Virus record (IMG/VR): IMGVR_UViG_3300017730_000002
Span: 45,287 to 109,286 of that record
Strand: one strand, 5' to 3'
Source of the DNA: a virus
DNA length: 64,000 bases
In this document: positions 10,841 through 53,300 of the stretch, in pieces
Numbering within the stretch: position 1 is the first letter of the stretch
How the letters are laid out: each line of letters begins with the position of its first letter
Translations under genes and position numbers: made by a program
The notes under the pieces: generated by a model
What the model was told of the DNA's origin: nothing
Databases searched by the model: none
What the model saw: only the letters and a program-made list of their open reading frames with translations

Positions 10841-10902
10841 CTAAGGGTGTTACTCCACAACGGCAATGTTATGTTAAGGTCTAGGAAGTGTAGTAGAGGT
10901 GA

Positions 10903-15590: not shown

Positions 15591-16181
15591 ATGGATGAAA
15601 TATTTAATAAATTAATAAAAGAAAAGCTTACTCCTAATTCTTTATATGTATTACATTGTATTAAGAATAAGTTATCTGTATCTAAATCTTTAGCTAATTC
15701 TGATTTAGAAGTACATAGATTAAAGAGTGAGGATTGGCTTAATGAGGATTTGCAATTAACTAGTAAAAGCCTTATCTTTATGGAAGAATTAGGTTCTTAT
15801 TTTAGAAAGACTAAAAAGAAAACTTCTAAAGATTTAATGGGGGATAATTATGACAATAAAATAAAGTTATATAACTCTTTATTCCCTGCTAAAAAACTTG
15901 GAAGTGGTAAGTATGCAAGAACTAATGTAAAAAACTTGGAAGCAGGTTTTAGATGGTTTTTTGATACTTATGACTATGATTGGCATACAATATTATTAGC
16001 AACAAAAAAATATGTACTTGAATATAAAATGAAAAATTATGAATACATGAGAACATCCCAATATTTTATTAGAAAACAAAATACAGACAAATCTTTTGAG
16101 TCTGATTTAGCTACTTACTGCGACATGTTAAATGAAGTAGATTCTAATGAATTTGACATATTCAAAGATAAAATAGTATAA
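15591..16181 (+). CDS. Possible helicase loader or replisome organiser, 196 aa
   Basis: No family is recognised by motif. A helical protein with an N-terminal region reminiscent of a small winged helix (LTPNSLYVLHCIKNKL) and a C-terminal helical region rich in aromatics. It lies one base after the glycosylase and one base before the DnaB start, the place where phages usually keep helicase loaders or DnaD-like organisers. The assignment is from context only. Confidence 0.55.
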   Translation: MDEIFNKLIKEKLTPNSLYVLHCIKNKLSVSKSLANSDLEVHRLKSEDWLNEDLQLTSKSLIFMEELGSYFRKTKKKTSKDLMGDNYDNKIKLYNSLFPAKKLGSGKYARTNVKNLEAGFRWFFDTYDYDWHTILLATKKYVLEYKMKNYEYMRTSQYFIRKQNTDKSFESDLATYCDMLNEVDSNEFDIFKDKIV

Positions 16182-16182
16182 T

Positions 16183-30605: not shown

Positions 30606-30761
30606 TCAAGTACGATCAAATACATGCAATGATAAAGTACATATAAATAAATATAAAGTAAACGTATTCATTTGTTCTTTCTCATTTGGTGCTATATATT
30701 CCCAACCTAAAGCACACCTATCATGAGGCCAATGCAAAGCTATATCTAATTGCCAATTCAT
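30606..30761 (-). CDS. Small conserved-looking protein, 51 aa
   Basis: Last gene of the minus operon. Its ATG overlaps the stop of the 1,945-aa gene by one base (TAATG), a clear coupling signal. The peptide has an aromatic N-terminal half (MNWQLDIALHWPHDRCALGW) and a C-terminal hydrophobic strand (TLYLFICTLSLHVF). Its look recalls a small protein found repeatedly in Bacteroidota phages, but this is from memory. Function unknown. Confidence 0.6.
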   Translation of the reverse strand: MNWQLDIALHWPHDRCALGWEYIAPNEKEQMNTFTLYLFICTLSLHVFDRT

Positions 30762-33700
30762 TATCTTAAATTTTCAAATTGTTCATTCTTCTTAATTGCC
30801 CACATAGGCGATAAGTTTTTACCTGTCAATCCTATAGTTTGACCTAAGTGATTCCATATTTTATTTGAACCTTCTTTTTGCCAATCGTAATATCCAACAT
30901 CTTGTTTATAGTATGCTTTTTCACTTCCAGTAGCAAGATTATATAAATCATTTAAGATTCTTACATAAGCTACAACAGTAGGTCCAAGCATTATAGTACT
31001 ACTATCTATCATACTCAGTTGATCTTTAGCTCCCCATATCGGTAAAAAGAGTCTATTTTCTTTTTGAATCATAATTAATTGATAAAGAATCTGATTACCT
31101 GACCAACCAATTAAAAACGGATAGTCTTTCTCTTGTCTTTCTCTAATCTTTTTAAATCTATCTTCATCTCCTGGATCATAACCAAATAATAAACCAGCAG
31201 CTAAACCTAATATTGCTAAGTAAGCAGTTTCTGTAACTATCTTTCTCCATGCAGCTTTTTCTCTATCTGTCATATATTTACTTCTATATTGACCTGTGGT
31301 TAACATTTTTCTAAGTGAATCTATAGCATCTATATAATAACCTCGTGTAAGCTCATTAGTATTCCAATTGTATACATCACCAAATAAATTGTTTTTTGCT
31401 GTATCAAACTGGAATCTATTAAGAACCATACCTGTTAAAAATCTTCTAGAGAAAGTGGCAAGACTATAACCAAGATACTTTTCTGCAAGAGGGCTATCTA
31501 TTTTATTAGTTATACCATTAAGTCTTGCGTTTGCATCTGCAATAATTAACTTAAGATTATTAAACTGAGTAGACTTGCTAATAATTAGCTTTTCCCCTGG
31601 CTCAAGTTTTCTTTTAGATTTTATTTTATTCTTTGCCATTAACTTTTCAACAGGTATAGAATACTGTTTAGCAATGCTCTCTAAAGTATTACCTTCACCT
31701 ACTGTATGATTAATTGGAACATGAGAATATTCAGGATCCACACCTTCTTTTAATTTTAATACACCATCCTCATCAGTTGTCCAAGCATCTGCATATGGAA
31801 TTTGTTTTACTGTACCATCTGGCTGCATTACATCAACCATCTGTTTATACATTATTCCAAATCCAAGTTCCATAGCTGAATTTTGTTCCATTAGTTTCCT
31901 ATCTGAATAAAGCCACTTTCCATCAAAAAAATCAGTGACCAAAGTCCTAGTGGTTGACTCACCAAACTCAGTTCTAGATTTACCTGGGGCCATATCAAAA
32001 GCTTCTGATATTTGTACATCCATAGGTTTAGCACCTCTAGCATAATTACCAACTGTACCCATTTGCCACGTAGCTTTAGCTGCTCTATACTTACCTCTGA
32101 CTAAAGTTCTAGCATCTAAATACTTTCCACCCGCAGCTTCTATAGCTTTATTAAACTGCATACCTCCTCTGTTTTTTAAAGAAGATTGAGGATTTAATGC
32201 AAAGAATGCTCGTGCTGCATTACCTGATAAAGCTCTCATAGCTTTTGTAAGAGGTCTGTTATTTTGCTGAAATTCTGACACTCTTTGTCCATAATAAGTT
32301 CTATCTATAAACTCTCTAAGTGCAGTTATTCGCTTGTCTTCACCTTTATTTTTAGAAATTAGATTTAGTCTAGATGAAATTTTACCTGTATTACGACTTG
32401 CAACATTTAAATTTTTGATAGCATTTTCATCATCAGATATAATACCTAATATTGCATTCATTACAGGTTCATCTTCCATCAAAGCTTTTTGTTCATTTAA
32501 AGAATACAGATAATCCCATATAGATCTCATAGCATCTGTAGAGGTTTCTGCTAAAGATAGTTTATACATACCTCGTACTGGAACTCTTGTAATTCTATTT
32601 CCCTCTAAATCTGTTGGAATATAAATAAGTGATTCATCAAAATTAAAACCATCTTCTGCATCATCTTTTTTTCCTTGTACATAGGAACTCACATATTCTA
32701 GTGCAGTACTTACCTGTTCTTTTTTGGCCTTTAGTTTTGCTGCTGTTTGACCACTAGTAAATGCTTCTACATTTGTTCTTTGTCTAAATCTAGGTAAATC
32801 TAAATACATTCTAGAAGAAAGTACAGCGTCTTTCTGTAGATCTAAAAGTTCTTTTTTATAACCTTGCAATAATTTAAACTTAGCATCGTTCTTAGATTGC
32901 ATTTCATAGAACTTCTTGTTTTGATATTTATCATCAAAGGCTCCATTAATTACATCTCCTGTAAATTCTTTTGGTAAAAAGTTACCTCTATTGTCTATTA
33001 TAGTACCTACGTATTGAGATCTATCGGCACCCATAGGTATAGTTCTGTACTTATCTTTTATAGTTGAAGTAGAATACTTAGCAATTGGTACACCTTGTAT
33101 GTTAATGGTATTACCTTCTGAGTCTTTTATAGAAGTAGTTTTGTAATGATTTTTATTTGAAGGTCTTTCTAAACTCCAAACCTTTAGTCTAACAAATCCA
33201 GGAGACATTTTTTCTCCATCATACATGTCTCTTTCAAAGTGATTCTTATAAAACCATTCTTCAAATACAGACCCACCTTCAGTCTCATTAAATATTTTAT
33301 TTAAAGCTACCTTATCTAAAACAAAATCTTCTACAGTTTCAGCAGTAACAGGATCAGCTCCCGTACCCTCAAGTGCATCATTAAAAGCAGCAATATAATT
33401 ATCAGTTGGTGTGATGTTTCTAAGGGCATTTAGTTTTGAATATAGGTTTCTCATGTTACCTATTTCAATAGATGTCATTCCAAACTCATTTTGTCTTGTA
33501 GTTAAATCTTGAAACACCTTTAACTCATCTGCACTTAGTTTAGCTTTCTTAGATATCTTAAAATTAAGTTGGTTTAAAGTTCTAGACTCTGCTTTTGATA
33601 AACCAGTCTTTCTATCAAACAATAGATTCTGTGCTACTATTTCATTTTCAATTGTCTTTAATCTTTCAATCTGTATTGAGTTTAGATCTCGGCCATTAGG

Positions 33701-36619: not shown

Positions 36620-39600
36620 TTAAAATCCACAGAAATCATCTGTTCTATCTATTGGAGGTTTACCCTTAGGTCCAAATTCTTTTTTAACATCTTCTTCAAA
36701 TTTACTTAAGTCTCTCTGATCCATACGGAGAGTACCATCTGGATTACGTACTACTCTTCCAGATAAATATCCTGGAGGTTGATCACCAGTTGTTGTATCG
36801 GTAGTAAAATCAGTATTAAGATTTCTTCTAGTTAAAAAGCTATCTGTAAGAATTTGTAGAACTTGTTTATTAGATAAAAGATTTAATAACCACTTGGTAA
36901 ACTTCTTCCACCAGTTTAGAGCTTCACCTTTTTGTGCTACTACTTGTTCTCCTATAGCTTGAACTAAAGCTTCTTCCCCACCAAATCTTCTTATTCCTTC
37001 CTGAACAAGTTCATTGTCTCTAAAGTATGCAATGTAATGATGAGCATACTCATGAGGCAAAGTATCTTGTTTTTGGTTTGCCGCATCAATTAAAACAGTC
37101 ATAGCTTTTATATTAGCCTGACCTATAATTTTATCTTTGTAAGTTTGATTTAATAAATATAAATCACTAAATACATTAGTAGTGCTACCATAAACAAGTT
37201 TATTTGTTAAACGACTGTTTAAATCAGTTAAGTCTGCTAACTTTTGAAAAGGTGCTTCATAACCAGTAAACAAGCTCTCCTGAACTTTATCCCATTGATC
37301 TGTAGCAGTCATAGAAAGCACTCCTTCAGCTATACCATTGTTTAAGTCTTTAAATAACTTACCACTTGATTCTGCAGTTACAGCATTTAAGAACCAACCT
37401 GGAACTGGAGCCATTATATCTCCTGCTGTATTTATATCTTTATCGTCTGCAGTAAATTCATCTTTATTAGCAAGTACATATTTAACCAAGTCTTGTTTAG
37501 CTTTTAATTTTACATACTCTTCATTTTTTTTACGTTCAAGTAAGTCATTACTATTATGAAAATAGGTAGGGCTTGTTAGTCCTCGCAAACCATCAGTAAT
37601 ACCATTAGTAGCTAGGATATCTTCTGCTAAATCACCAAGACCACTTTCTATGGCAGATGATGGTGCAGGTCCGTAATAATGCTCCCAAGACAGCTCAAAC
37701 TGAGATATCCTTCCTTTAACAAGATCAGCTTTTCTTTGCTCAGGTGTTTGAAATTGTACTTTAAGTCTTTGTTTTAATAACTCCTTTTCTAAGTTTTCTA
37801 AAGCTACATAATCAATTCCTTTTTTGATTCTGTCTGTATTATTTTTAAAATCTTTTAAAGCAAGTTGTGCATCAATCCAACGATCATCAGATGATGTGAC
37901 TTCTTCACCACTATAATATGTTACATCTTTATATAACTTTTCCCCAGTAACTGGATCTTTTCCAGCACGTTCTCTTCGTTTAGAAGGTACTCTTTCATAT
38001 AACTTATCTAGTTTACCATTTATAAAGTTATATGTATATATACCTTCTTTTCCTTGTAAGTTAAAATCTCTACGAACACCAGGAAATGTTTTAGTAATGT
38101 ATGGACTCATACTTTGACCAATATCAAAATAATTCTGAGCAGTTACAAAAAGTTCAAATAAATCCTTTTTAGTTTTTGTACCATTATCAAATCCTGAAAT
38201 AGTATCTTTAATCTTTTTAATTTCTAGATCTGCTAAATACTCAAGATCTTTATCGGCTTGTTCAGCTATTTCAATGTCTTTAATGTATTGAGGATTATTA
38301 GGATCCATACCGCTTTTTTCTCCTTCCTCAAGTCTTTTAAGTTCTTGTTGAGTTGACCAATCAAGAATTTCTTCACCGTAAGTATCATATAATAAATAAC
38401 CTAATGCATAAACATCTAAAGTAACTCTACCTCCATACTCTACGTTTATATACTTATAAGGATCACTCTTTATAGCATTTTCCATTGTAGCTAAAAAAGC
38501 TACTTTATTTTTACGGCTAAATGCATAAAATTGAGAAGCGGCTTTTTTTAAAGGTGCTGTTAATTCTGCAATAACTTTTTGCGTTGTTTCTTGAGATCTT
38601 TTCATCTCCTGATTGAACACATCTGGACTAGAATCAAATCCAATGGGATCATTTGTAAAATTCAGCTTTATGTTAGGATACTTTTCTCTTAATACAGCTT
38701 CAATTTTCTTAGATAACTCTTCACTAAATTTAGTATCAAATCCAGTGGTGTCAGGACCTAAAATTATTTCAGGGTTTCTACTCACAAAACTTTCAAAACC
38801 TTTTAAGTCAGCTTCATTACCTAGTATATGTATTTGATCTATATCATATACCACATAAATATCTGTAGGAGTTGGATCCATTGTATTTTTTATAATAGAA
38901 GAATCCTTATTAGTTTCTTTATCTTCTTTTATAATAGCAGCAAATGACTTATCTCTTCTAGTTTGTTCTTTTTGCGTATAAGTACCAGGATTTTTCATAT
39001 CCAAAATAACTTTAACTAAATTTCCATCAAATGCAGAAAAACCTTCTTCTCTTGTTTTTTTTATAAACTCAGAAGCTTCTTTAAATGTTAAGTTCTTTCT
39101 TATTCTTTCATCAGATTGAAAAGCATCTCCAGTTTGTTTAGGTTTTAAATAGACAGCATATTTAATCTTGTTATCATAAAATTCATTTGCTTTTGCAAGT
39201 CTACCTTTTTTAAATGCATATAATGTAAAAGAACCACCGTCATCATCCATTACATTTCGAGGCTTTTCAAAAAATTCCTCTTGCTGTTCTAAAGTTGATT
39301 TATCATATAAAGTCTTTAATATACCATTAGCATCAATAGTATCTTGTTCTATGTATGTACTAAAAGGGTCCGCTGTTAAATATTCTAAAGCTGTTGAAGG
39401 GTTATCTGCAAAAAAGAACCCTTCTTGTGCAGATGAAGATCTAGTATAAGATCCAAGTTTTTCTTTTGAAAATGGTTTAAAATTTTCATCAGTACCATGA
39501 TATAAAATATCTTTTACTTGACTATTTGGGAATATAGATTGTATGTATTCAGCATATTGTTCTTTTGTACCAATAGCAGCAAGCTCAGGATTTTCAGAAA

Positions 39601-42600
39601 ACAGCACATCTATTTCAGGATTAACTTGATCAGTAACCATTAGCTTACTAAACTCGTCATTGAAGATAATGTTAGATGGTATAGGTCCTGCAGATGCAAA
39701 CATCTCTGCCATCTCTAAAGGACTATATCCATTTAGATTTCTACCTTGTGTTGTGTATAAAACATATGCATTTCTACTAGGATTTTTTGTATAGTAGTCA
39801 TACATATTTTTTATTTGATTTATAATCTCATCTTTAGGAACCTGTCTAGCAGGATCATCCATAGGAAGTTGCCAATCAGTTACGGTTTGTATTGCATAAG
39901 ATGAACCTTCCGTACCTGTTTGAAATCCTCTAGGTTGGCCTACTATAACTCTAAGACCCTTACCTTCAATCTTTTGTTTTTTATATGCTCTAGAATCATT
40001 AGCATATAGAATACCAGCTGTACCTCCACCGTGGAATCCATCTTGATTAGATCCAAATACAGTATCTTCATTACCTTTTAGGTTTTTAATATCAACAAGA
40101 CCTGTATAAGTTTTAACCTTAGCAGGCGGTTGAGTAGATTTATCTATGTTTCCACTTTTTACAGCATTATGTCTAAGTGTAATACTAAATCTTTTAGACT
40201 TATTTCCTTCAGCATCTATACCATGTTTATAATTGATTTGCCCATCTTTACCCATTATTAAACCTAGGCCAGATTTCATAGATATTTTATATTCTTTTTT
40301 ACCCTTTAGAATCATAGTTCTTTCATCACCAAAACTTATAGTTACTACAGAAGGATTTAACTTACCTTTATTATTTAATATAGGCTCGTTGTCTGTATGG
40401 AATCCTATTTTTTGACTACCATCCTTATATTCATTTATAAGAACCATATCAAAGTATCCATCCTCAAAACCTAAATCTCTAGTTATTTTAGAGACCAACC
40501 TTTGAAGTTCAACACTTCCTGTATTAGCAGGCCTAGTTGTCCCTGAATAAGAATAACTTTCATCAGAAAAATACATACTGCGTCTACCCCTACCAAATTT
40601 ATCAGAAGACTTATGCTCAGATTCATAAGTTTGATCATACAATGTTTCTATAAAATCAAAAACTTTTTTAGACTCTTCGTTTGTAAAAACTTGTTTAGTA
40701 AAAACTTCGGCATCTTCTACATTAACACTTTTTAAACCCTTGGTATTTACTAAACCATTAGTAAGTAAAGTTGCAATGTCTAAATCACTACTTTGATCTG
40801 TTGGTTGAACAGGAGCTATAGGAGCACCATATTCTTTAGGATCTACCACTAAGTCTATAAACTTATCGGTTGACATTTTACCAAATTTTAAAAGCTTCTT
40901 AAATACAAATTCAAAAGTAGCATCATTGCTTTGAGCATCTGTGAAATTCTGACCAGCTACATTCATTATATTTACAAAGTTCTCATAAGGAAGAACATCA
41001 ATCATTGAATCTCTATTATATCCACCTGTACCATTTTGATATATAGATATCAAAGGTAACCTCGCAAATAATCTAGACAATCTTAAGTTCTCAGCTCTAT
41101 CAGCTACTTTCTTTACAGCAGGGTCTGCAAGATCTTTTAAGTTTTGGTAATAGATATCGCCAAGACCTTCTGTCTTTTTTACTTGAGATATGTTTCGTAA
41201 TGATAAAACTTTTATACCAACATTATCACCAAACTGTTTAGGAATATAAAGCTGCTCAAGTATAGGATACTTTTGCTTTAAATCTGCATTTCTGTCTATA
41301 CTGTCAATTACAGTTTGTGAATAAGAATAAGCTCCTGTTCCCATAATTACAGATCTATTATAAGAATCCAGAAGCGCTTCTTTATTCAAGAAGTATTCAT
41401 AGGCTTGTTTTGTAGCATTCTCTTCAGTAAAATTAAACTGAGTTTTTAAAGTATTCTTAACAGCAATAAATTCTTTGTCACTAGATATATTTTCTAGTGG
41501 TATTCTAGATCTTAAATACTCTCTTGCTATTACATACTTTTTATACTGTATAACATTATCAAATATATCTTTATTAAAAGTTCTTAGACCTTCTTTAGGA
41601 TATGTTATAGAATTTTTTAGATAAGCTTTGTTAAAAAAGTCTCTTTCTATTTTAGCATTATCTACATATATAACATCTGACTGTTCTGTCATATTAGCCA
41701 TTGCACCTCTTTCTACACCTTCTCTGTTTATAATCTTACGGCCCATGTATGTTTCAGGAGTAGATGTTAGCTTACCATTAGAATCCACAAAACCTGTCTG
41801 ATAGTTTTGGAATATATAATCCATCAAACTATCTTTAAATCTTGTTATAAGTAAAGACTTCTCATCTCTGGTTGCTCTTATAAAAGGAAGTTCTCTCTTA
41901 AGAAAATCATTAACTCTGTCATTATTTCTAAATTGAAACACAGGAGTTACAATATCTTTAATAAGATCACCTATCCTGAAGCTACTTAATATAGATTCTT
42001 CTCTTAGTTTTCTTACAAGCTGTTGATCCACCTTTGTTAGATCAGCTAAACCTTCATAATTAGCTTCTTTAAGAATTATTTCTTGTAGTGTTCTTGATGT
42101 AGTTGTATCAGGATTAGACTGAAGCTTTAAACTTGTCAAACCTTTTAACTGCTTTTCAATTTCTAAGAAATGAAGAAACATATTTAATCCTACGTTATTT
42201 GCTCTAGGATCATTTGAAATAGTATCTCTATTTACAGAAGCCATATCACTAGTAGTAAAGACATCCTTATCTCCCATTCTTCTACTTAAAACATCATAGA
42301 AGTTTTTATTAGTTATATACTGGTATACCGTAATATCTTGATAATCTTCTGTTGTAAACTCAAGTAAGCTACCCTTTCTATTTTGTTCAAGAGCTATTTT
42401 TTCAATAGTTCTACCTGCAGCTTCGTATTTTACAAACTGGCGCTCAACACCTTCTGTTGAATACTCGCTACCCAGCTTTCTCTGTTGAGCAGCGTATTCT
42501 ATTACATAAGGGTTAGATACAAACTGTACTGCTGACTTAATTGGAACACCAGCTTTTATTAAGTACAAAAGTATCGGAGCTACCTCTCTATTACCTTGAA

Positions 42601-45600
42601 TGTTAAACACCCAAGGATCCTTTTCAATATCTACAAATCCATTTAACAATTGATTATAAAGCTCATTAATGTTATTACCATCTTTTGCTGTAACATCCGA
42701 TATTGATATAGATCCATCAGGAAACTCATTATGTGGTAAGAATAGTCTCATATTATAATCACCATCTGTAAGTGTCCAGCCGCTTTTTATAAAATTAGGA
42801 AGACTTGTCTCTTTAATTACTTCTCTTTTGCCTGCTTTATCTACTACAGTAACGGCTTTAACATATCTCTTAGTTGCATTATCATATATTTCTGGAGAGT
42901 ATTTTTTAGGCATCTTACCTCCTTGGCTGTTTATTATAGGACTTAATGCATTTTCTATAGCTACAATACCAAGTACTCTTTTACCTATCATGTTCTCAGT
43001 ATGCTTCTGTAAATTATAGATAGGCTCGATTGTTCTTGTTGGACTTATAACCTTTGTCTCTTTGCCGTTTTTATCTACTTTAATTTTGACACCTTGACTT
43101 CTGTTAGCGTATCTATCATAAGTTGCTACATCATCTCCAATTTCATCAGCTATCTCTTCTTTTAATAAATAAGTAGCATTAGGTTTTACTAAGTTAGCAT
43201 AGTTAGATTTTAGACTAAGTATCTCAGCCATGTTAAACATTATATCATTTTGTAAAGCAAGCTTCTTAGTATTAAATATCTTTTTCTGAGTAGCTTCAGT
43301 AGACATGTTTGCCATCTCAATAGTCTTTTCTACAGAAGAATTATATTCAGTCAAAGACCCATCAGAATTTATGTTAGGAAAAAATATATTAAGCTTATCA
43401 ATATCAAAGTCAGATCCTGATTTAGCAACTATCTCTGTTGGAAGTATTATAATGTTACCCGCACTTGCTGGAAGAAATTCATGAACCTCACCAAATTCCA
43501 TATAGTTAATACCTCCAACAGGAATACGTGTACCTACTATGGTAACCTTTTTTCTATTTTCACCATTATTAGCATCTAACCACTTTTCGTCCTTTATAAG
43601 CTTATTTAAATTAGCTAAACTAGCCTCTTCATCTAAAACTCTAGTTGTATTTTCTACACCAGAATCATCTATATATGTTTCTTCTCTATATACAGCAACG
43701 TCATCAAGTCTTAAAAGATTTTTAAAACTACCTTGCATCGCAATAGCTACTTTCATACCTGCAGTACTACCATCTTCTGGTTTAGTTCTGTAAAAAGGTA
43801 AATCGTTTGTACCTCGATATTTTTGAATGTCTGCTGTACTTGCTGTTTTGTACTCAGCTTGATTCCACATACCGTTGGTCAAAGCACTAGAAACTTGAAC
43901 TAAAGACTCACCATTAATTCTTTGATTAATAATTCTTTTTTGAATTAGATTAATTATCATTGACTCAATATCACCAGCTTTAAAGTGATATGATAAATCA
44001 GTTTCTAAAGTTCCATTTACATTCTTTCCTACAAATTCTATTTGATGTTCAGGGACATTTCTTCTGCCTAATTCTCTTTGAACTAAGCTTAAGAAGTTAT
44101 TAATATTACCTATATACTTATCGCCTTCTTTTCTATATCCTATTTCAGACAAAAGCTCTTCTTCTAAAATCTTTTCATAATCACTTATCAATTTAGCGTA
44201 TCTTTCTGCAGCATCCTTAGCATCAGGATCTGTAATAATACCTCTATTATAGAGATCTTTTAAGATCATTTTTCTAAACTGAGTAGAAAATATAGTTTGT
44301 TTTTTAAACTTCTTTGGAACGCCTGTTACATTTTTAAGATACTCTACGTAGATAGTATTCATAGTAAAGTCAATATCACCCTTTAGTGTATCTTGCTCTT
44401 TATTCTCAGCATCAAAAATTATATCAGCGCCTTCTGGATTAGATGCTATATGTGAAACTTTAGAACCTGTCTTAAATAAAGAATAGTGAATACTTTTATC
44501 CATCATTTGTTCATGAAGACTTTCTAATTCACCAGTCATTACCCCAGGTATCAATGGCATAAGTGAAAATTTATGCATTGAATTAACAGGTAACTTAGCT
44601 TGTTTTATACTACCTGAATAGAATAACTTATATGGCGGAAAGAATTCAGTAACTTCATTTATACCCACATATTCTCCTCTAGAAATTTTTTGAAACAAAG
44701 CTTCTTGCTCATAGCTCCAATCATTTTCTAAAAATCTTAAAGATCTGTATGCATCAAAAGTAATATAACCTTGGCCATCAGCCTCTTCCATTCCTTTATA
44801 AACACTGAGATCTCTCTTTACAAGTTCATCTACTCTAGCTTTATCAAAGTTTTTACTATAGAATTCTCTGAGACCCTTTTCTATCTGATCTAAATATTCA
44901 CTGTCTCTTTCAATGTCTTTCATAATAGCAGTATTTAAACTACCATCATACCTAAGAGTCTTCTTACCATTTTGCTCTGCATAAGAAGTCTTTTTTAAAT
45001 GACCATTAACGAATGTCTGAGCTGCTTTATCTACTCTAAAAGTTTTACCACCAGACTTAGTACCAGGAGATCTTTTTGAAAGCTCTTCTTTCTCATGATT
45101 GTATTGTGATAAATCACCTTCAAGTAAATTTGCAGTTTCAAAATTATGAATCCATGAATTATACACATAAGCCGCAGCTAATAATTTCTGTTGTCCAAGT
45201 GGATCTTCAGTAATTTTATTAACCTCTTCTAATAAGTTCTTACTTAAATAGTCATTTTCTGCAATTTTTAACCGAACCTCAGTTGCTAACTTATTAAAAT
45301 ACTCATTTATTTCACCTTTTATCTTAGCTTGTAATGTGATGTTTTCATTTTCTAAATAAGATTCTAAATCAAAAAACTTACCTTCATTTTTATCAATGAT
45401 GTCATATATTTCTTGCTTAGTATCATCAGTTAATACGTCATCAAATATTGTAAATGACTCACCTGCCATTCTACCATTAGTAAGTTTATTATTAAATCCT
45501 ACATAGTTTTTAAACTCTGGGTTACTCTTAAACTTATGGATCCTGTTAGCTTCAGAAGCTAAGTAGCCCAATATAAACTCATTGTTTATTAACTCTTGAG

Positions 45601-48600
45601 TACCTCGATAATCACTAAACTTGTCTATATCAATGTATAAATTAGAGTTCTTTTTATTAAGATCAAATCCTAACTTACTTTTAATAGACCCTGTAAACTT
45701 TAAACCAAATGCAGACTTCTTAGATGCAGCTCTAATAAACTCTTGTGTTCCACCTAGCAGCATCATGTGAAGCTCTTGTGAGAACTTAGATCCTTCATCT
45801 AAGTCAGCGGTATTAGTACCTCCACCTGTTTCTTTAGTAGTACCAGAATCTAAGAATAATTCAAGATTAGCATTTTGTATACGCTTGCCGCTTGTTGCAG
45901 TAGAGTTTAAAGAATACATACTTCTTAAAAGTACTGACTTAGATGTAAAAGGATTTATGTCAGGACTAAGATAATTCATTGGATTATTTTCACTATCTAT
46001 AAGATTTTGAAAATCTTCTGCATCATTTATTTTGGATGTTCTTGTAGATACTGTATTATTTTCTATATACTCATATACTATATTTCCTTCTGCATTCTGT
46101 ACACCAAATATATTAGCCGCTTCTCCAAATCTTCCTTGTAAACGTGCTATTCTATCTATCTGAGTTTTTTGAGACGTAGCAGATGTAGACGTAATGCTTT
46201 TATCTAAAGGTCTTTGAAGTGTCTTAATGGGATCCTGCAGTAAGTCAGATAATCTATCAGTTTGTGTTTTACTTAAAGGCGCATCCTGAGTGCTTACTTT
46301 ATCATATACATTTTTAAGATTACCATAGATATATTCTAAACCATAAAATCTTTGACCCTCTGATGAAGTTAATTCGGTTCTTATGGTATCAATATTATCT
46401 ACATATAAACCAATTGCTCTAAGAAATTCTACAGACTTAGACGTATCAAACTTGCCATTTTTACCAAAGTCTTGGATAACCTTTTCTAAATTTAACTCTG
46501 TTATTTTTGAAGATGGGTTCAGTGTTGTGTATGGGTTATCCATATCACTCATGTACTGATTTCTAAACGTATTAATAACATTTCTAGCATCAGCAGATGC
46601 ATTATTTACTTTGGCTGTATCATCCTTAAATAAAGTTAGCTGTATATAAGGTACTCTTGACTTATTAAAATCCTGCCAGAAAGATGTAGTAGCTTTAAAG
46701 TCATAAATATTATTAGCTGCTATACTTGGGTTGGGAAGCTTAGTTGAAGTCAATTGTTTAAAAGGTGCATACATGTCACCTGCCTTAACCAGTTTATCAT
46801 ACATTACTTGAGGATCAGATTCACTTGCAATAGTTCTTACAACATTATTCCACGTTAACCTAAAGTCAGCAAGCTTTTTAAATCCTAAAGAGTTTAACTT
46901 AGTCTTGCCACTCTTGTCTGTGTCATGCAGACTTTTAAGCATGTATATTGTTTCCTTACCTGCAAACTCTAATAATGATTTATCTCCAACTTTTTTATCA
47001 GCAAATCTTTCACCAACTTCTTCAGCTGTATTTTCATCCTTAGTAAGTTCATCTTCTATATATGTATCTGCTAGAATCTTATATGTACTGTTTTTCAAAT
47101 GGAAACCTACCGTACCATCTGTTGCTGTGCCATAGTTTTCTACAGCAGCTGTAAGTACTCTTATGTTTTCATCAAGCTGATCTACTACAAATTCATTCTC
47201 CTCGGCAACTTCTACTCTTTGTGTTTTAAATTCGTTTAACTTTTCCTCAAGTCTCTCTTTTATTACATCATATAAAATAGACTTTTTACCAGGATCCAAA
47301 ACTAACTTAAGAGCCATGCCTTTATTATTTTCAGAGTCAGTGCTTCTTAAATCCATAGTAACTTCATCAACTATATCAGATATAATTGAATCCATACTAT
47401 CTTTAACTAAAAGAGATTCGCTTCTTGTTAAAGCTTGTTTATCGGTACCAGGTTCTGTAATACCTATGTTTCTTTCTAACTCATCAAACTGTACATTCTC
47501 AATGGTAGGTGTATATTTATTGAGACCTTTGTTATAATAAAGAGCTTCAAACATTTCTTGAACCATTTGAATTTCCATTACATTAGATGCATATCCTACA
47601 CCAAACAACTTTTTTAAGAAATTTAATATTCTTCTAAAGAAAGTATTTCTTTTAGGAGATCCTTTTTTAGCTTTTGGATTTTTAGCATAAGTTCTAAACT
47701 CTTCTGCAAGAATTTCTTCTATTTCCTGAACACTATAATTTTTACCACCTTTTAAAGATTTTTTAACTTCTCTATATAGAGCTCTTTTTTCTTTAGGTGA
47801 TAAAAACAATTGTGTAAATCCATGCCATGCTTCGTGATATAAATCAACTGATGAACCTTTCTTAGCGATCTGTATTGTACCATACTTACCTGCAAGAATA
47901 CCGCCATATGAAATAAACTTAGCAAATGCATCTGAGTTAACTATATTAACTCCTACCTCTAAATCTAAATATTTACTAAGGTCAGATTTATTCCACCAAT
48001 CAATTGCTTTTTTATTTTGCTCAGATGTACCTTTATCTTGAGTTAATGTTCCAGATCTTTCTAAACCAAATCGTTTAGCTATACCTCTTTCATAAGGTGT
48101 ATTTGTTCCTGCTTTAGTTGTAGCATCATCTATTTGTTCTTCCTTAGATTTAGTCTGTCTATTTTTATACAGCTCTTTATAGTAAGGTACTCTACTATCT
48201 TCCTGAGCATAAAAATCAGTTTCTTGAACATTGCCAATAACTTCCCCAGTAGTACTATCCACTACAGATAAGAGTTCGGGTATAAAAATTTTAGTCTTGT
48301 TATCAATTTTTTCTTCTATTACAAATGTTATAGGCGCACCTACCATAAAGGGAATTGTGACATTTCCATATTTATATTTATCAGCAAGATAGATTTTCAT
48401 TGTTTGACCATCCACAGGTGATTGAAATAGTATATATGCATAAGGACCTTTACCACCAGGTCTTTCTCCATTTTCTACTGCAGATATAGTAGTTGTAGTT
48501 ACAGTACCAGCATTCTTTACAAAAGCTGCAAGAGCATCTTTTCTTTTTCTAATTTCAGATGGTTGCTTTTCTTTAGCATCTTCTAAAGATTTAGTTACTT

Positions 48601-50338
48601 TACTGGGTATAGCAAAGTTCATATATTGATTAAACACCTTTTCAGCATTAGCTGAAGATAAATCAATTTTACCACCTTTTAAGGAAGCAAGATAATCAGT
48701 GTAAGATATGCCAGACTTTTGAAGTTCGCCTGTTTCAATATTGTAATCTACAAAAGCATCACTTGCTAAGTTACTCTCATTAAATATTATACTTATAGGA
48801 TACTTTACGTTTTTAAACTCACTAGCATTCATGAGTGTATCAACTATAATAGATTTAGCTTCTGGACTTTTTAAATCGAGAGGCTTTGATTTCTCTGTAG
48901 GATTCTTTTGAAAAGTATCTTCAAAATAAGAAAACTGAATTGTTTTATTATTATCTAGATATTTTATACCATGTCTTCTTTGTTTTCTACTTTTAGTATA
49001 AGGAGATAAGAATTGCTTTATGTAAGCTGATCTTTCATTATAATCTAACTTATCATTTATTAATACCTCAGCAATTTTTTCAGCAGTAGCTTGATCAAGA
49101 GCAGGTCTATTTACAGTAAACTGCTCACCTCTTATATTTATTGTAGACTTGTATACATTCTGTGATTTTAATGGTGTTATTGTTCTTATTGAATCCTGTA
49201 AACCAAACTTAGAAAGAGTTCCTAATGTTAAACTTTTTTGTGTATATGCGGCCTCTACACCTGCAGAGAAACCTACAAGAGCTAATGATTTTACATCACC
49301 ATTAAGAATGCTTTTATTTAAATCGTATAAGCTTTTAAGCTGCTCTTGAAATATTTTTTCAGCAACTTCTTGAGTTACTTCTTGATCAGCCATAATCCTA
49401 GCAACGTTATTTGCCAATACTTCGTATCCATAAAGATTTACAGGTTTATACTTACCACCTTTCTTTACCACGTTTCTCATCATTTGATAGACAATCTGCC
49501 CACCCGTTTGAGTTATGTTTCCGTTATTATCAAATTTAATAGGGTTACCTTCTTTATCAGCTAATACAGTTAAGATAACTTCATTTGGGTTTATTACATT
49601 TGCCTTAGACTTTCCTGCTCTTATTATAGCAGAAGCCTTCAATAAAAAGTTACCAGTTATCTTATCTAGATCCTTAACATCCATATCAGATAACTTCATA
49701 GGCTTTAGGGTAACGTCTACTCCTTGATAAGATATAGTACCAGTTACACCTTCTTCCTGAACATCTTCAGCTTGTTGTATATTGTTAAATACAGTATAAA
49801 AAACTTTTCTTTCTTCTGAACTTTTTTGAATTAATGTTTCATCAAGTTTATTAGGATCAAGAGTTTCAAATTGTTGAAACGTTGTGCTAAATACATTAGT
49901 TGGCTCAAGCCTAACAGGCTCAAGTCTATCTACAGATGATGGAGGTATCTTAGACGTAGTCAACTCTGTTTGAAACACAGCTTCTTTTAAAACGCTTTGA
50001 CTTTGCTGTGGTGCAAAATGTTTAAGTACATTTCTTAGGCCAACGTTAGGATCAGCAAAAAGTTTATTAAGCTTAAGTATTGGATCTACATTTAGCTCAA
50101 CATCATTAATAAAGTTTGGTAAGGTTGAATAAGCTTTAAACACCATTAGTGGTACAGGCTGTAAGAATTTCACAGCAGTATCAATATCTTTTGCTTTTGT
50201 AATCTTTTTAAAAAGATCTTTCATATATGCATCAGCATCAAATGGAGTATTTTCCGATTGAGCTTGCTTCATCTTTTTAGTTACAGCAGTATATATCTTT
50301 TCTAATTGTATGGGGCTAACAGCACAAATTATTTTCAT
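36620..50338 (-). CDS. Giant fused RNA polymerase polyprotein, 4,572 aa
   Basis: One uninterrupted 13.7-kb frame. Residues 2310-2314 are DFDID within IVAKSGSDFDIDKLNIF, the metal-binding signature of crAss-like phage RNA polymerases (two-barrel type, related to YonO and eukaryotic RNA-dependent polymerases). Those are packaged in the virion and transcribe early genes. Other parts: HEAWH at 835-839 (zincin-like); an AlkB-like dioxygenase at ~3200-3390 with H3314, D3316, H3372 and the R3383/R3389 pair; a GGG...SYAI-containing module at ~3400-3565; an ADP-ribosyltransferase-like YHGT segment at ~3590-3690; and HEYAH at 4429-4433. The protein is probably cleaved or ejected in domains. The size and fusion are exceptional. 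Confidence 0.85.
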   Translation of the reverse strand: MKIICAVSPIQLEKIYTAVTKKMKQAQSENTPFDADAYMKDLFKKITKAKDIDTAVKFLQPVPLMVFKAYSTLPNFINDVELNVDPILKLNKLFADPNVGLRNVLKHFAPQQSQSVLKEAVFQTELTTSKIPPSSVDRLEPVRLEPTNVFSTTFQQFETLDPNKLDETLIQKSSEERKVFYTVFNNIQQAEDVQEEGVTGTISYQGVDVTLKPMKLSDMDVKDLDKITGNFLLKASAIIRAGKSKANVINPNEVILTVLADKEGNPIKFDNNGNITQTGGQIVYQMMRNVVKKGGKYKPVNLYGYEVLANNVARIMADQEVTQEVAEKIFQEQLKSLYDLNKSILNGDVKSLALVGFSAGVEAAYTQKSLTLGTLSKFGLQDSIRTITPLKSQNVYKSTINIRGEQFTVNRPALDQATAEKIAEVLINDKLDYNERSAYIKQFLSPYTKSRKQRRHGIKYLDNNKTIQFSYFEDTFQKNPTEKSKPLDLKSPEAKSIIVDTLMNASEFKNVKYPISIIFNESNLASDAFVDYNIETGELQKSGISYTDYLASLKGGKIDLSSANAEKVFNQYMNFAIPSKVTKSLEDAKEKQPSEIRKRKDALAAFVKNAGTVTTTTISAVENGERPGGKGPYAYILFQSPVDGQTMKIYLADKYKYGNVTIPFMVGAPITFVIEEKIDNKTKIFIPELLSVVDSTTGEVIGNVQETDFYAQEDSRVPYYKELYKNRQTKSKEEQIDDATTKAGTNTPYERGIAKRFGLERSGTLTQDKGTSEQNKKAIDWWNKSDLSKYLDLEVGVNIVNSDAFAKFISYGGILAGKYGTIQIAKKGSSVDLYHEAWHGFTQLFLSPKEKRALYREVKKSLKGGKNYSVQEIEEILAEEFRTYAKNPKAKKGSPKRNTFFRRILNFLKKLFGVGYASNVMEIQMVQEMFEALYYNKGLNKYTPTIENVQFDELERNIGITEPGTDKQALTRSESLLVKDSMDSIISDIVDEVTMDLRSTDSENNKGMALKLVLDPGKKSILYDVIKERLEEKLNEFKTQRVEVAEENEFVVDQLDENIRVLTAAVENYGTATDGTVGFHLKNSTYKILADTYIEDELTKDENTAEEVGERFADKKVGDKSLLEFAGKETIYMLKSLHDTDKSGKTKLNSLGFKKLADFRLTWNNVVRTIASESDPQVMYDKLVKAGDMYAPFKQLTSTKLPNPSIAANNIYDFKATTSFWQDFNKSRVPYIQLTLFKDDTAKVNNASADARNVINTFRNQYMSDMDNPYTTLNPSSKITELNLEKVIQDFGKNGKFDTSKSVEFLRAIGLYVDNIDTIRTELTSSEGQRFYGLEYIYGNLKNVYDKVSTQDAPLSKTQTDRLSDLLQDPIKTLQRPLDKSITSTSATSQKTQIDRIARLQGRFGEAANIFGVQNAEGNIVYEYIENNTVSTRTSKINDAEDFQNLIDSENNPMNYLSPDINPFTSKSVLLRSMYSLNSTATSGKRIQNANLELFLDSGTTKETGGGTNTADLDEGSKFSQELHMMLLGGTQEFIRAASKKSAFGLKFTGSIKSKLGFDLNKKNSNLYIDIDKFSDYRGTQELINNEFILGYLASEANRIHKFKSNPEFKNYVGFNNKLTNGRMAGESFTIFDDVLTDDTKQEIYDIIDKNEGKFFDLESYLENENITLQAKIKGEINEYFNKLATEVRLKIAENDYLSKNLLEEVNKITEDPLGQQKLLAAAYVYNSWIHNFETANLLEGDLSQYNHEKEELSKRSPGTKSGGKTFRVDKAAQTFVNGHLKKTSYAEQNGKKTLRYDGSLNTAIMKDIERDSEYLDQIEKGLREFYSKNFDKARVDELVKRDLSVYKGMEEADGQGYITFDAYRSLRFLENDWSYEQEALFQKISRGEYVGINEVTEFFPPYKLFYSGSIKQAKLPVNSMHKFSLMPLIPGVMTGELESLHEQMMDKSIHYSLFKTGSKVSHIASNPEGADIIFDAENKEQDTLKGDIDFTMNTIYVEYLKNVTGVPKKFKKQTIFSTQFRKMILKDLYNRGIITDPDAKDAAERYAKLISDYEKILEEELLSEIGYRKEGDKYIGNINNFLSLVQRELGRRNVPEHQIEFVGKNVNGTLETDLSYHFKAGDIESMIINLIQKRIINQRINGESLVQVSSALTNGMWNQAEYKTASTADIQKYRGTNDLPFYRTKPEDGSTAGMKVAIAMQGSFKNLLRLDDVAVYREETYIDDSGVENTTRVLDEEASLANLNKLIKDEKWLDANNGENRKKVTIVGTRIPVGGINYMEFGEVHEFLPASAGNIIILPTEIVAKSGSDFDIDKLNIFFPNINSDGSLTEYNSSVEKTIEMANMSTEATQKKIFNTKKLALQNDIMFNMAEILSLKSNYANLVKPNATYLLKEEIADEIGDDVATYDRYANRSQGVKIKVDKNGKETKVISPTRTIEPIYNLQKHTENMIGKRVLGIVAIENALSPIINSQGGKMPKKYSPEIYDNATKRYVKAVTVVDKAGKREVIKETSLPNFIKSGWTLTDGDYNMRLFLPHNEFPDGSISISDVTAKDGNNINELYNQLLNGFVDIEKDPWVFNIQGNREVAPILLYLIKAGVPIKSAVQFVSNPYVIEYAAQQRKLGSEYSTEGVERQFVKYEAAGRTIEKIALEQNRKGSLLEFTTEDYQDITVYQYITNKNFYDVLSRRMGDKDVFTTSDMASVNRDTISNDPRANNVGLNMFLHFLEIEKQLKGLTSLKLQSNPDTTTSRTLQEIILKEANYEGLADLTKVDQQLVRKLREESILSSFRIGDLIKDIVTPVFQFRNNDRVNDFLKRELPFIRATRDEKSLLITRFKDSLMDYIFQNYQTGFVDSNGKLTSTPETYMGRKIINREGVERGAMANMTEQSDVIYVDNAKIERDFFNKAYLKNSITYPKEGLRTFNKDIFDNVIQYKKYVIAREYLRSRIPLENISSDKEFIAVKNTLKTQFNFTEENATKQAYEYFLNKEALLDSYNRSVIMGTGAYSYSQTVIDSIDRNADLKQKYPILEQLYIPKQFGDNVGIKVLSLRNISQVKKTEGLGDIYYQNLKDLADPAVKKVADRAENLRLSRLFARLPLISIYQNGTGGYNRDSMIDVLPYENFVNIMNVAGQNFTDAQSNDATFEFVFKKLLKFGKMSTDKFIDLVVDPKEYGAPIAPVQPTDQSSDLDIATLLTNGLVNTKGLKSVNVEDAEVFTKQVFTNEESKKVFDFIETLYDQTYESEHKSSDKFGRGRRSMYFSDESYSYSGTTRPANTGSVELQRLVSKITRDLGFEDGYFDMVLINEYKDGSQKIGFHTDNEPILNNKGKLNPSVVTISFGDERTMILKGKKEYKISMKSGLGLIMGKDGQINYKHGIDAEGNKSKRFSITLRHNAVKSGNIDKSTQPPAKVKTYTGLVDIKNLKGNEDTVFGSNQDGFHGGGTAGILYANDSRAYKKQKIEGKGLRVIVGQPRGFQTGTEGSSYAIQTVTDWQLPMDDPARQVPKDEIINQIKNMYDYYTKNPSRNAYVLYTTQGRNLNGYSPLEMAEMFASAGPIPSNIIFNDEFSKLMVTDQVNPEIDVLFSENPELAAIGTKEQYAEYIQSIFPNSQVKDILYHGTDENFKPFSKEKLGSYTRSSSAQEGFFFADNPSTALEYLTADPFSTYIEQDTIDANGILKTLYDKSTLEQQEEFFEKPRNVMDDDGGSFTLYAFKKGRLAKANEFYDNKIKYAVYLKPKQTGDAFQSDERIRKNLTFKEASEFIKKTREEGFSAFDGNLVKVILDMKNPGTYTQKEQTRRDKSFAAIIKEDKETNKDSSIIKNTMDPTPTDIYVVYDIDQIHILGNEADLKGFESFVSRNPEIILGPDTTGFDTKFSEELSKKIEAVLREKYPNIKLNFTNDPIGFDSSPDVFNQEMKRSQETTQKVIAELTAPLKKAASQFYAFSRKNKVAFLATMENAIKSDPYKYINVEYGGRVTLDVYALGYLLYDTYGEEILDWSTQQELKRLEEGEKSGMDPNNPQYIKDIEIAEQADKDLEYLADLEIKKIKDTISGFDNGTKTKKDLFELFVTAQNYFDIGQSMSPYITKTFPGVRRDFNLQGKEGIYTYNFINGKLDKLYERVPSKRRERAGKDPVTGEKLYKDVTYYSGEEVTSSDDRWIDAQLALKDFKNNTDRIKKGIDYVALENLEKELLKQRLKVQFQTPEQRKADLVKGRISQFELSWEHYYGPAPSSAIESGLGDLAEDILATNGITDGLRGLTSPTYFHNSNDLLERKKNEEYVKLKAKQDLVKYVLANKDEFTADDKDINTAGDIMAPVPGWFLNAVTAESSGKLFKDLNNGIAEGVLSMTATDQWDKVQESLFTGYEAPFQKLADLTDLNSRLTNKLVYGSTTNVFSDLYLLNQTYKDKIIGQANIKAMTVLIDAANQKQDTLPHEYAHHYIAYFRDNELVQEGIRRFGGEEALVQAIGEQVVAQKGEALNWWKKFTKWLLNLLSNKQVLQILTDSFLTRRNLNTDFTTDTTTGDQPPGYLSGRVVRNPDGTLRMDQRDLSKFEEDVKKEFGPKGKPPIDRTDDFCGF

Positions 50339-50341
50339 GTC

Positions 50342-53300
50342 TTAACAGTCTAGGTCATCTAATAAATTATCTTCAGCATCTTCTGCTGAAATATTAGAAT
50401 CATTTATTTCTTTTAATTTAGCATCATTTGCAAGAAGCTCTGATGTAGCAGTTGTTGTCTCTTTACCAAAGTTTTCTTCTTCTTTAGTTACATTTTGTTC
50501 AAAAGACTTTGGATCATTTAACGCATCATTTGATAAATAGTTATCATTTATTTGATCAAGAGTTAACGTCATAACTGAACCATCGTTAGATTTAACTGTA
50601 ATTTTATTACCATCTATTTTTGAAACTTTCACAATACCATCTTTTTCTACAAATATATCACCTTTGGATTTACCTTTAGTTTTTATTACATCTAATTTAG
50701 CAATTACTTCGCTACCTACTTTAACATTTGCTAATGTTATTGATGGAGCTCCAAAGTTAGAACCTGTGTTTAAAGCTGCTTTAGCTGCTTCTAGAATGCT
50801 ATTAAGCTCAGAAACTGCTTCCGTTGGAATTTCTCCTTGCAATTCAGCTATCATAATGTTTCTATTTACTGTATCTATATCTTTTATAGATTTAGCTTTT
50901 GCAATTTGAGATTTCAGTTCATTAAATGCTTTGACTTCTGACTTAGTCATTTTAACATTCTTAATAGGTTGTTTTAAAGCATCTTCTAAAGCATCATTAT
51001 CTTGTTCATCAGATGATTCTGTTTCACCAAGTTTATTCTCTAATGATGAATCCGTAGATGGTGCAGTTGTTAAAGGAATTACAGAGTTAATTCTTTCTGC
51101 AAAGTCAGCCTTATTTAAATTTATTAAGTATTCACTACTAAGTAAGTTTGCAGAAGAAGGTCGTTGTGCACTTTCAATTTTACCATCAGTATTTTCACTA
51201 GTAGATTTAGTTATCTGAATGGGTAATAAAGCTATGTTAGCATCAACACCTATCATTCTATTTAAAAGATTTGCATATGCAGTTTGTTGCAATCCGTAGT
51301 TCTGAAGTTTAGAAAATTTATTTCCTTTCTTAAAGAAGCCATTCCATTTACTAGATTGACCAGTCTTAATATCTACAATAGTAATATTACCTTTTCTATC
51401 TGCAACAAGTAAATCAATTTCACCAGCTATTCTTAAAGCATCGTCATAGACAACTATACCTGTACTAGCTATATATAGTTCACCGTTATCAACTCTTCTC
51501 TTAAGCTCAGTAAGCATTCCTTCAGGACCAAAAAGATTATCATAAGCTTCTCTACTAATCTGATTCTCATTAAACTCAGGTACTGTACCTTTATCAAAAA
51601 GATCTTTAACGGCCTTGTCAACATAATTACCTGTAATTCTAGAAGACTCATATGTAAGCTCACCTACTAGATTAACTGCAGCATCTTTTAGACTAGTTGC
51701 AGATGCAGTATCAAATATATCTTGAGCTTTAACTTTTTCTACAGGCAGTCCTTGTTTATCAAGTAAATTAAGAGAATATAAAACTTTACCATCTTCAAAC
51801 CTATAGACATTAACCTTATAAGGTTTATCCTTAACAGTTATTCTGTAAGTTGCAGATGTTTTATATTTATAAATACTACCTTTACCTGCTAATCTATACC
51901 TCTTTGGATCAGATTTTACTAACTCTTGTGCTGCCTTATAAGCTTCAGTACCTTCTATAAGGCTTTGGTCTCTTTCCTCTAGTTTTGTTAGTTCAATACC
52001 TACACTTATACTTCCATCATAACCAGGTTGTCCTTCTTCTATTGTTTCATCTATAAGAACAACTTTTTCTAAAGTAGCTATATCTTCTTTATTAGTAAGT
52101 TCTTCAGCACCTTCTAGTTCAGGAACTAAATCTGATAAACCTATGGCAGCTTGTTCCATTGCAACCATCTCAGATACACCTTCTAACACTTTAGGTAACC
52201 TAACCTTAAGTTCCCTAAGAGTGTATGGCTCTACACCAGATATTCCAGCTTTGTTAATTTCATCAATAAATGCGTCTATTGCAGTTATATCTTGACCTAA
52301 TGTTCTGTCAAATATCTCTTGTACCTTTTCTTTATCTTTGTATGTATAATCACCTAAGAACTGATTAATAACAGAAGTAACTCTACTGTATGGATCTTTA
52401 CCTTTACCCTCTATATAATAACCATCATTTTCTTGCCTGTACTTGGGTTGTTTAGATTTAAGCTCTTGTATCTTATCAATTGCAGCTTGCTGCTCAGGAC
52501 TAAATCCAGATCTAATTCTAGAGTTAATAACACCCTCTAAATTTTTTATTTGAATTTTTAAGTACTTAATATTTTCATCTTCTTGTGGAGTTCTAGTTTT
52601 CTTTTCTTCCAAAGACTCAACTTGAAGTTTTATTCTTGTTTGTATAGCTCTTAGTGTAGGAGCATTCTTACCTATGGTACTGATAGTTTTACCATTAAAC
52701 TTAAACTCAAAATCTTTCTTTAGACCTTCGCCCTTTACAGCAGCCTTAGCTTCTTGTTTTTGATTGTAATCATCAATTATTTTTTTAACTGTAAAGTTTC
52801 CTTGCTTAACAAACTTATCAAAAAGATTTTCTTGTTGCTCCTCTGTTAAGGTATCTCTTTGCTCTAGTGTTAATGTTTTATCAAACTCTACAAATAAAGC
52901 ATTTCTTAATTCTGCGGGCATGCTTGCTATATCACTATCTGTAGTATATACTACAGCCTTTTCAGTTGGTGTAGTTGTAACTTCAGCAGAATCCTCATTT
53001 TCTAAATACTCTTGTGTTATTCTTTCAAGCTCTTCATTCCTTTGCTGATTAATTAAGTTTACAGTATTTTGATTTGGAAGACTTTGTATATTATAAATCT
53101 CCGCAGATAGATAGTTGAACTCTTTGTTTAATTTTTTAACATCTACGATTTCACCACTTTCATCAACAAATCTTAGATTACCTTCTTTGTCTTTATAAAA
53201 TATAACAGGATCTTGGTTTTCATCATATGTAGCTTGTATATACTGACCACCTTCTAAATCTTTAACAAGATCGTTAAGCTTGTAAGTCTGACCCTTCTTT

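What the first reader, a model, noticed from the sequence alone, without database searches (positions are those of the whole stretch)
36620..50338. 4,572-residue fused polyprotein built around a crAss-type RNA polymerase
Seen: one frame of 13.7 kb with DFDID at 2310-2314, plus zincin-like HExxH motifs at 835 and 4429, an AlkB-like domain, an SYAI-containing module and a YHGT segment. Known: crAss-like phages package a DFDID RNA polymerase in the virion, and polyvalent proteins that carry several enzyme domains are delivered with DNA by phages and conjugative elements. Inference: this protein delivers transcription and several host- or DNA-modifying activities in one chain. The number of fused domains in one polymerase chain appears unusual.
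Basis: partly seen in the sequence, partly recalled or inferred. Interest (0 to 1): 0.88.

Follow-up and report, generated by a model that had tools for sequence, protein, structure and literature searches.

The report
Cysteine-coupled train of injected phage proteins
The giant RNA-polymerase protein is ordinary for crAss-like phages, but it is the middle car of a three-protein train whose only cysteines sit at the ends that face each other, a rule that holds across about 150 crAss-like genomes and suggests that the phage hooks its injected proteins together with breakable chemical bonds.

Summary
The ORF is real (minus strand, 4,572 aa) and is a crAss-type virion RNA polymerase: an AlphaFold model of residues 1580-2710 matches 6VR4 at E=3e-30. 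A zincin, AlkB, A1S_2505, a probable ART and a second zincin are fused to it. Size and fusion are ordinary: related chains reach 4,300-5,800 aa and the tail after ~3175 is variable cargo. The 4,572 residues hold two, at 5 and 4570. The upstream 2,103-aa protein holds one, its last residue; the downstream 1,945-aa protein holds one, residue 3. phi14:2, crAss001 and two sets of IMG/VR loci follow the same rule. Wherever the chain is broken into separate proteins, both facing ends carry a cysteine; where proteins are fused the pair is absent (N-terminal RNAP cysteine in 81/81 split, 0/22 fused; complete fusions of ~5,500 aa have none). Inserted cargo proteins have exactly two, one per end. I infer head-to-tail disulfides that join the cargo into one thread for ejection and are reduced in the host. 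The rule is shown; the bond is inferred. No searchable paper describes it; the phi14:2 RNAP paper was not available.

The parts
36620..50338 (-). Protein B (P0001): 4,572-aa virion RNAP chain, middle member of the chain; only two Cys, residues 5 and 4570
50342..56653 (-). Protein A (P0003): 2,103-aa first chain member with a PD-(D/E)XK nuclease domain (1718-1830); its single Cys is the last residue, 2103
30761..36598 (-). Protein C (P0002): 1,945-aa last chain member with a zincin-like HEFAH at 182 and a LysM domain at 1631-1673; its single Cys is residue 3
50345..50347 (-). Cys2103, last codon of A (faces B)
50324..50326 (-). Cys5 of B (faces A)
36629..36631 (-). Cys4570 of B, third residue from the end (faces C)
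36590..36592 (-). Cys3 of C (faces B)
47339..48034 (-). Zincin-like domain 1, HEAWH at 835-839 (domain about 769-1000)
   Evidence: collinear matches in Crassvirales giants
40814..47071 (-). RNAP body, about residues 1090-3175, conserved in 39-80 of 80 relatives up to residue ~3100
43397..43411 (-). DFDID catalytic motif, residues 2310-2314
40172..40675 (-). AlkB-like 2OG-Fe(II) dioxygenase, residues 3222-3389, first domain of the variable tail
39650..40060 (-).
   Evidence: also in other Crassvirales RNAP chains
38669..39604 (-).
   Evidence: AlphaFold model uninformative (pLDDT 40)
36836..37231 (-). Zincin-like domain 2, HEYAH at 4429-4433 (about 4370-4501)

Best explanation
The window's giant protein is the middle car (B) of a train of virion-packaged proteins A (P0003), B (P0001, RNAP) and C (P0002). 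The proteins are nearly free of cysteine except at the ends that face a neighbour: A ends in Cys, B has one Cys near each end, C begins with one. I propose that these form head-to-tail disulfides (A C-terminus to B N-terminus, B C-terminus to C N-terminus) in the mature virion, so that the cargo leaves the narrow portal and tail as one continuous thread in fixed order and ratio. Reduction in the host cytoplasm would then uncouple the cars so that RNAP and effectors can work. A peptide bond (gene fusion) and a cysteine pair are interchangeable couplings, and new cargo enters the train either way. Shown: the sequence rule, its near-universality in the sampled relatives, its loss on fusion, and the crAss RNAP fold. 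Known from the literature: homologues of A, B and C are in virions, and the crassvirus tail is stabilised by inter-protein disulfides. Inferred: that the termini pair with each other, that the bond is a disulfide, the thread-like ejection and the reductive release.
For: Cys positions: window A only 2103/2103, B only 5 and 4570/4572, C only 3/1945. phi14:2: g067 only 1797/1797, g066 only 3 and 2179/2180, g065 only 3/1421. crAss001: gp47 only 2339/2341, gp49 only 5, gp50 5, 1334 and 2404. Discovery set (61 non-redundant IMG/VR loci): 55/55 complete B C-termini have a Cys in the last 8 residues and none at -13 to -60; B|C junctions paired 43/43. Second set seeded with the phi14:2 core (65 loci): 57/63 B C-termini; of the six without, L135, L160, L165 and L176 are fused to C, shown by homology, and have 1, 0, 0, 0 Cys in about 3,500, 5,500, 3,700 and 5,600 aa. 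Split versus fused A/B: B N-terminal Cys in 81/81 split and 0/22 fused; Fisher p=7e-23; nine changes on the RNAP tree, all 5 well-supported independent pairs concordant. Inserted cargo proteins of 169-1,146 aa between B and C: 11/11 hold exactly two Cys, one at each end. The ART-like cargo is peptide-fused in the window and a free Cys-ended protein in L082. The A|B boundary lies at three or more places relative to P0001 and the pair is there each time. Protein level, not DNA level: TGY in frame 55 versus 7 and 8 in the other frames; in crAss001, cr85_1, cr112_1, Kolpuevirus and cr128_1 A is on the opposite strand from B and C and still carries its Cys; intron-type breaks inside B in cr108_1 and cr131_1 carry no pair. 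Outer ends are free: 3/80 C C-termini and 0/22 A N-termini have Cys. Interior Cys 0.004-0.027% against 1.16% in other crAss001 proteins. Crassvirus tail and portal-vertex proteins carry inter-subunit disulfides (PMC10172136).
Against: No experiment here shows a bond, nor that facing ends pair with each other rather than with copies of themselves. The assembling cell is reducing and many hosts are anaerobes, so the oxidation step is unexplained; no obvious oxidase or thioredoxin was found by a crude CxxC scan of the window's genome. Cys depletion alone is not specific: the ejected N4 RNAP (3,500 aa) and N4 gp51 and gp52 have none. Exceptions: the cr273_1 chain has its last Cys about 50 residues from the end; in L053, L066 and L074 no Cys lies in A's last 12 residues (in L053 and L066 it is 18-19 residues from the end); Oafivirinae giants hold 7-27 interior Cys; L146 and L147 are interrupted near DFDID.
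Confidence: 0.66

Rival explanations
1. The terminal cysteines are packaging or anchoring tags: each binds a capsid, portal or scaffold component, or a metal or cofactor, and facing ends are not joined to each other.
For: No bond has been shown; the cysteines lie in short, possibly flexible terminal peptides; equal copy numbers could also come from separate tags.
Against: The first protein lacks an N-terminal Cys and the last lacks a C-terminal one, which tags for separate proteins do not explain; the pair disappears at each fusion and inserted cargo gets both ends.
Confidence: 0.15
2. Other pairings: B closes on itself through its two end cysteines while A bonds C, or each terminus forms same-site dimers between copies.
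For: B alone carries two end cysteines; several copies per virion are likely (up to six of each RNAP-associated protein by volume estimate, PMC10172136).
Against: Inserted cargo with two end cysteines, and A-B or B-C fusions that keep exactly the remaining facing pair, are simplest as a head-to-tail chain; same-site dimers do not explain the free outer ends.
Confidence: 0.08
3. The cysteine codons are a by-product of a DNA or RNA signal at gene junctions, such as translational coupling.
For: Most pairs sit at tight gene junctions.
Against: Strong in-frame bias and use of both TGT and TGC; the cysteines persist where A is on the opposite strand; a ferritin-like gene between B and C in L084, L108, L113 and L177 has no terminal Cys while B and C keep theirs.
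Confidence: 0.01
4. One reading: a single exceptional polyprotein that alone carries transcription and several host- or DNA-modifying activities.
For: RNAP, zincin, AlkB, A1S_2505, ART-like and a second zincin in one frame.
Against: Equally large chains are common, the tail varies between close relatives, and two further giant proteins obey the same terminal-Cys rule.
Confidence: 0.1

Closest known systems
phi14:2 gp66 virion RNA polymerase (PDB 6VR4) and Crassvirales RNAP blocks (crAss001 gp47, gp50, gp49)
   Same: Same RNAP fold and GSDFDID motif, same three-protein block A, B, C, same terminal cysteines.
   Different: The window B is twice as long: zincin 1 lies inside B, and a ~1,390-aa cargo tail follows the RNAP. 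The terminal-Cys rule was not mentioned in the papers that could be searched; the phi14:2 structure paper itself was not held.
Polyvalent proteins of phages and conjugative elements (PMC5512222)
   Same: Several unrelated enzyme domains in one early-delivered chain, with zincin and ART-like modules; the N4 RNAP fused to a zincin and in some phages to ART is their model case.
   Different: RNAP of the double-psi-barrel type instead of the T7-like type; an AlkB module, a term that does not occur in that paper; cargo can also be coupled through end cysteines as separate proteins.
N4 ejected proteins (vRNAP gp50, gp51, gp52)
   Same: Giant ejected RNAP with companion ejection proteins, cysteine-free interiors.
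   Different: No terminal cysteines at all in gp50, gp51 or gp52.
Disulfides of the crAss001 tail barrel, fibre hubs and gp57 (PMC10172136)
   Same: Inter-protein disulfides in the mature virion of the same phage order.
   Different: They staple folded shell proteins; here single end cysteines would couple cargo proteins in series.

Membership tests
crAss-type virion RNA polymerase | DFDxD catalytic motif in a conserved context | tested here: met
   GSDFDIDK in P0001 and relatives
crAss-type virion RNA polymerase | Single-chain RNAP fold of phi14:2 gp66 | tested here: met
   AlphaFold2 model pLDDT 85.4; Foldseek 6VR4 E=3e-30; profile hit 3.2e-72
crAss-type virion RNA polymerase | Transcription block of several giant genes in a crAss-like genome | tested here: met
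   P0003, P0001, P0002 in series; TerL, portal and major head protein families
crAss-type virion RNA polymerase | Packaged in the virion and active in the host | not testable with these tools
   Known for phi14:2 and crAss001 homologues
Polyvalent protein | Two or more unrelated effector domains in one phage protein | tested here: met
   RNAP plus AlkB plus A1S_2505 above or at cut-off
AlkB-like 2OG-Fe(II) dioxygenase | PF13532 match with HxD, distal H and RxxxxxR | tested here: met
   E=2e-17; HTD 3314, H 3372, RFSITLR 3383
ART-PolyVal | PF18760 above curated cut-off and ART fold | tested here: inconclusive
   P0001 23.4 bits against cut-off 31.2; homologous L082 protein 42.9 bits; AlphaFold model uninformative
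Zincin-like metallopeptidase | HExxH in a zincin fold | tested here: inconclusive
   HExxH at 835 and 4429 within conserved regions; no fold test run
Cysteine-coupled cargo chain (proposed here) | Cys near both ends at each protein break, none at outer ends, lost on fusion | tested here: met
Cysteine-coupled cargo chain (proposed here) | Covalent disulfide between facing ends | not testable with these tools
   Needs non-reducing gels or disulfide mass spectrometry

The most novel reading that the evidence does not exclude
Crassvirales couple their injected proteins head to tail through single terminal cysteines into one redox-releasable thread. Gene fusion and disulfide coupling are evolutionarily interchangeable, and new effectors join the train either as C-terminal tails or as separate cars with a cysteine at each end.
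Probability: 0.62. Interest if true: 0.93.

Novelty: categorically new. Interest (0 to 1): 0.88.

Why it matters
crAss-like phages are the most abundant viruses of the human gut, and how they push about 600 kDa of RNAP-related protein through a tail bore under 50 angstrom is open; the structure paper says the order must depend on packing and interactions (PMC10172136). The terminal-cysteine rule gives a concrete, testable answer: the cargo is one string. It lets one read from sequence alone which proteins belong to the injected set, where annotated start codons are probably wrong (crAss002, cr110_1), and which new effectors are delivered. If the bond is real, it is a natural redox-cleavable coupling for delivering several large proteins in order.

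Tried and rejected
Close-relative scans of viral contigs with the whole of P0001 and with the AlkB region found nothing; an alignment of the catalytic core did. phmmer of P0001 against the PDB missed 6VR4; the profile found it. tblastn of P0002 against INPHARED gave no hit, although IMG/VR relatives show it is the C protein. The idea that size or domain number is the novelty was rejected. The idea that the terminal cysteines are a nucleotide-level signal was rejected. AlphaFold on the ART-like segment failed (pLDDT 40). One alignment piece was mis-specified and replaced. Six contigs common to both scans were removed from the second set. L178, counted as discordant, proved to be a complete fusion with no Cys in 5,597 aa. 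The p-crAssphage record was not held, nor was the phi14:2 RNAP paper. Literature searches found no mention of terminal cysteines or a cargo chain.

Full report
WHAT WAS CLAIMED AND WHAT IS THERE. The ORF at 36620-50338 is one open frame on the minus strand, 4,572 aa. The window is bases 45287-109286 of a 109,286-bp virus record. The left part of that record encodes crAss-type TerL, portal and major head protein families. P0001 lies in a minus-strand block P0006, P0005, P0004, P0003 (2,103 aa), P0001, P0002 (1,945 aa), followed by opposite-strand replication genes, the usual layout next to the Crassvirales transcription block.

THE RNA POLYMERASE. tblastn of residues 1900-2900 hits Crassvirales RNAP chains; phi14:2 g066 703-1373 aligns with P0001 1592-2322. 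The AlphaFold2 model of residues 1580-2710, built with 37 relatives, has pLDDT 85.4. Foldseek returns 6VR4 (phi14:2 RNAP) at E=3e-30, then QDE-1; the alignment profile hits 6VR4 at 3.2e-72.

DOMAIN MAP. Zincin-like HEAWH at 835 is collinear with Crassvirales giants. The RNAP body ends near 3175. Then follow AlkB (3222-3389), A1S_2505 (3427-3563; also in other Crassvirales RNAP chains), an ART-PolyVal-like region (3579-3890; not confirmed by structure), and a second HExxH region at 4429. Coverage by relatives falls from dozens to almost none after about 3175, and close relatives L031 and L039 have much shorter tails: the tail is exchangeable cargo. In 53 tails (window included) Pfam finds AlkB in 5, DUF7831 in 12, ART-PolyVal in 3, and NADAR, SLOG/YpsA, helicase and RNase H singly or in pairs. 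In L026 the AlkB-like region lies before the RNAP.

NOT UNUSUAL IN SIZE. Chains of 4,245-5,794 aa are annotated in cr118_1, cr50_1, cr53_1, cr56_1, cr109_1, crAss002, cr110_1, cr7_1 and cr273_1.

THE TERMINAL CYSTEINES. Aligning the tails gave one invariant column, a Cys three residues from the end. P0001 has two Cys in 4,572 residues, at 5 and 4570; P0003 one, its last residue; P0002 one, residue 3. phi14:2 shows the same pattern in g067, g066 and g065. In crAss001, gp47 (only 2339/2341), gp50 (5 and 2404, plus 1334) and gp49 (only 5) obey it although gp47 is on the opposite strand. In the discovery set, 55/55 complete RNAP C-termini have a Cys in the last 8 residues; none occurs at -13 to -60. 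B|C junctions have Cys on both sides in 43/43, split A|B in 34/38 (one of the four is a start-codon choice), fused AB in 0/6 on either side. Proteins inserted between B and C have exactly two Cys, one at each end, in 11/11.

VALIDATION. A second scan seeded with the phi14:2 core gave 65 further non-redundant loci. 57/63 RNAP C-termini carry the Cys. Of the six that do not, four are fused to C, shown by homology, and hold 1, 0, 0 and 0 Cys in chains of about 3,500, 5,500, 3,700 and 5,600 aa; two are interrupted close to DFDID. Over all data an N-terminal B Cys is present in 81/81 split and 0/22 fused chains; the split/fused state changes nine times on the RNAP tree and all five well-supported independent pairs agree. 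With five pairs that sign test alone cannot reach 0.05, so the case rests on the exceptionless table and the independent lines below. Chains with the DFDID motif 2550-2950 residues from the start were left out of that table as ambiguous; in all 14 of them the upstream C-terminal Cys and the B N-terminal Cys are both present or both absent.

WHY PROTEIN LEVEL AND WHY PAIRS. In-frame TGY outnumber the other frames 55 to 7 and 8. Strand separation does not remove the cysteines; intron-type breaks do not create them. A ferritin-like gene lying between B and C (L084, L108, L113, L177) has no terminal Cys and is skipped. Outer ends are free. The A|B boundary sits near P0001 residue 0, 610 or 870-980 in different lineages, with the pair at each. 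The ART-like cargo is fused in the window and a free doubly Cys-ended protein in L082. For crAss002 and cr110_1 the rule points to start codons downstream of those annotated (MSCTPSN, MSCTVKI).

MECHANISM (INFERRED). Homologues of A, B and C are virion proteins. The crAss001 tail is stabilised by inter-protein disulfides, its bore narrows below 50 angstrom, and up to six copies of each RNAP protein fit. Single facing cysteines in otherwise nearly cysteine-free giants (interior 0.004-0.027%, against 1.16% in other crAss001 proteins) are best read as head-to-tail disulfides that make one thread for ejection, opened by reduction in the cytoplasm. N4's ejected RNAP and its companions are cysteine-free but lack the end cysteines, so depletion may be general to ejected proteins and the couplings special to crAss-like phages. 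The bond itself is not shown, and what oxidises it is unknown.

LITERATURE LIMITS. No searched paper describes the pattern. PMC10172136 contains no mention of cysteine but reports reduced and non-reduced virion mass spectrometry. The phi14:2 RNAP paper was not held, so prior notice there cannot be excluded.

Noticed in passing
L084:10393-10887, L108:13297-13791, L113:8017-8517, L177:12830-13318: A ferritin-like gene (PF00210; Pfam run on L084, L108, L177) sits between the RNAP gene and the C gene in several lineages; it lacks terminal Cys. It could be a redox helper or peroxide guard for the virion cargo.
   Followed up: partly
L003 (cr108_1) 16104-16395; L099 (cr131_1); L103 (cr116_1): The RNAP gene is interrupted at or near the DFDID codons, as by an intron, in unrelated crAss-like phages; in cr108_1 and cr131_1 no terminal Cys appears at such breaks.
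   Followed up: partly
L012 (crAss002) 14107; L016 (cr110_1) 13744: Annotated RNAP starts are probably too far upstream; the terminal-Cys rule points to MSCTPSN and MSCTVKI.
   Followed up: partly
L017-L096 RNAP tails: The C-terminal tails of crAss-like RNAPs are a changing store of effectors: AlkB, ART, NADAR, SLOG/YpsA, helicase, RNase H, DUF7831.
   Followed up: partly
L187 (phage N4) 524-11026: The 3,500-aa N4 virion RNAP has no cysteine at all, nor do gp51 and gp52.
   Followed up: no
window 30761-36598 (-): P0002 carries a LysM domain at 1631-1673 inside a virion-type giant protein, suggesting peptidoglycan contact during entry.
   Followed up: no
window 10767-10841 (+): A tRNA-Arg (TCT) gene lies among the opposite-strand genes.
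   Followed up: no
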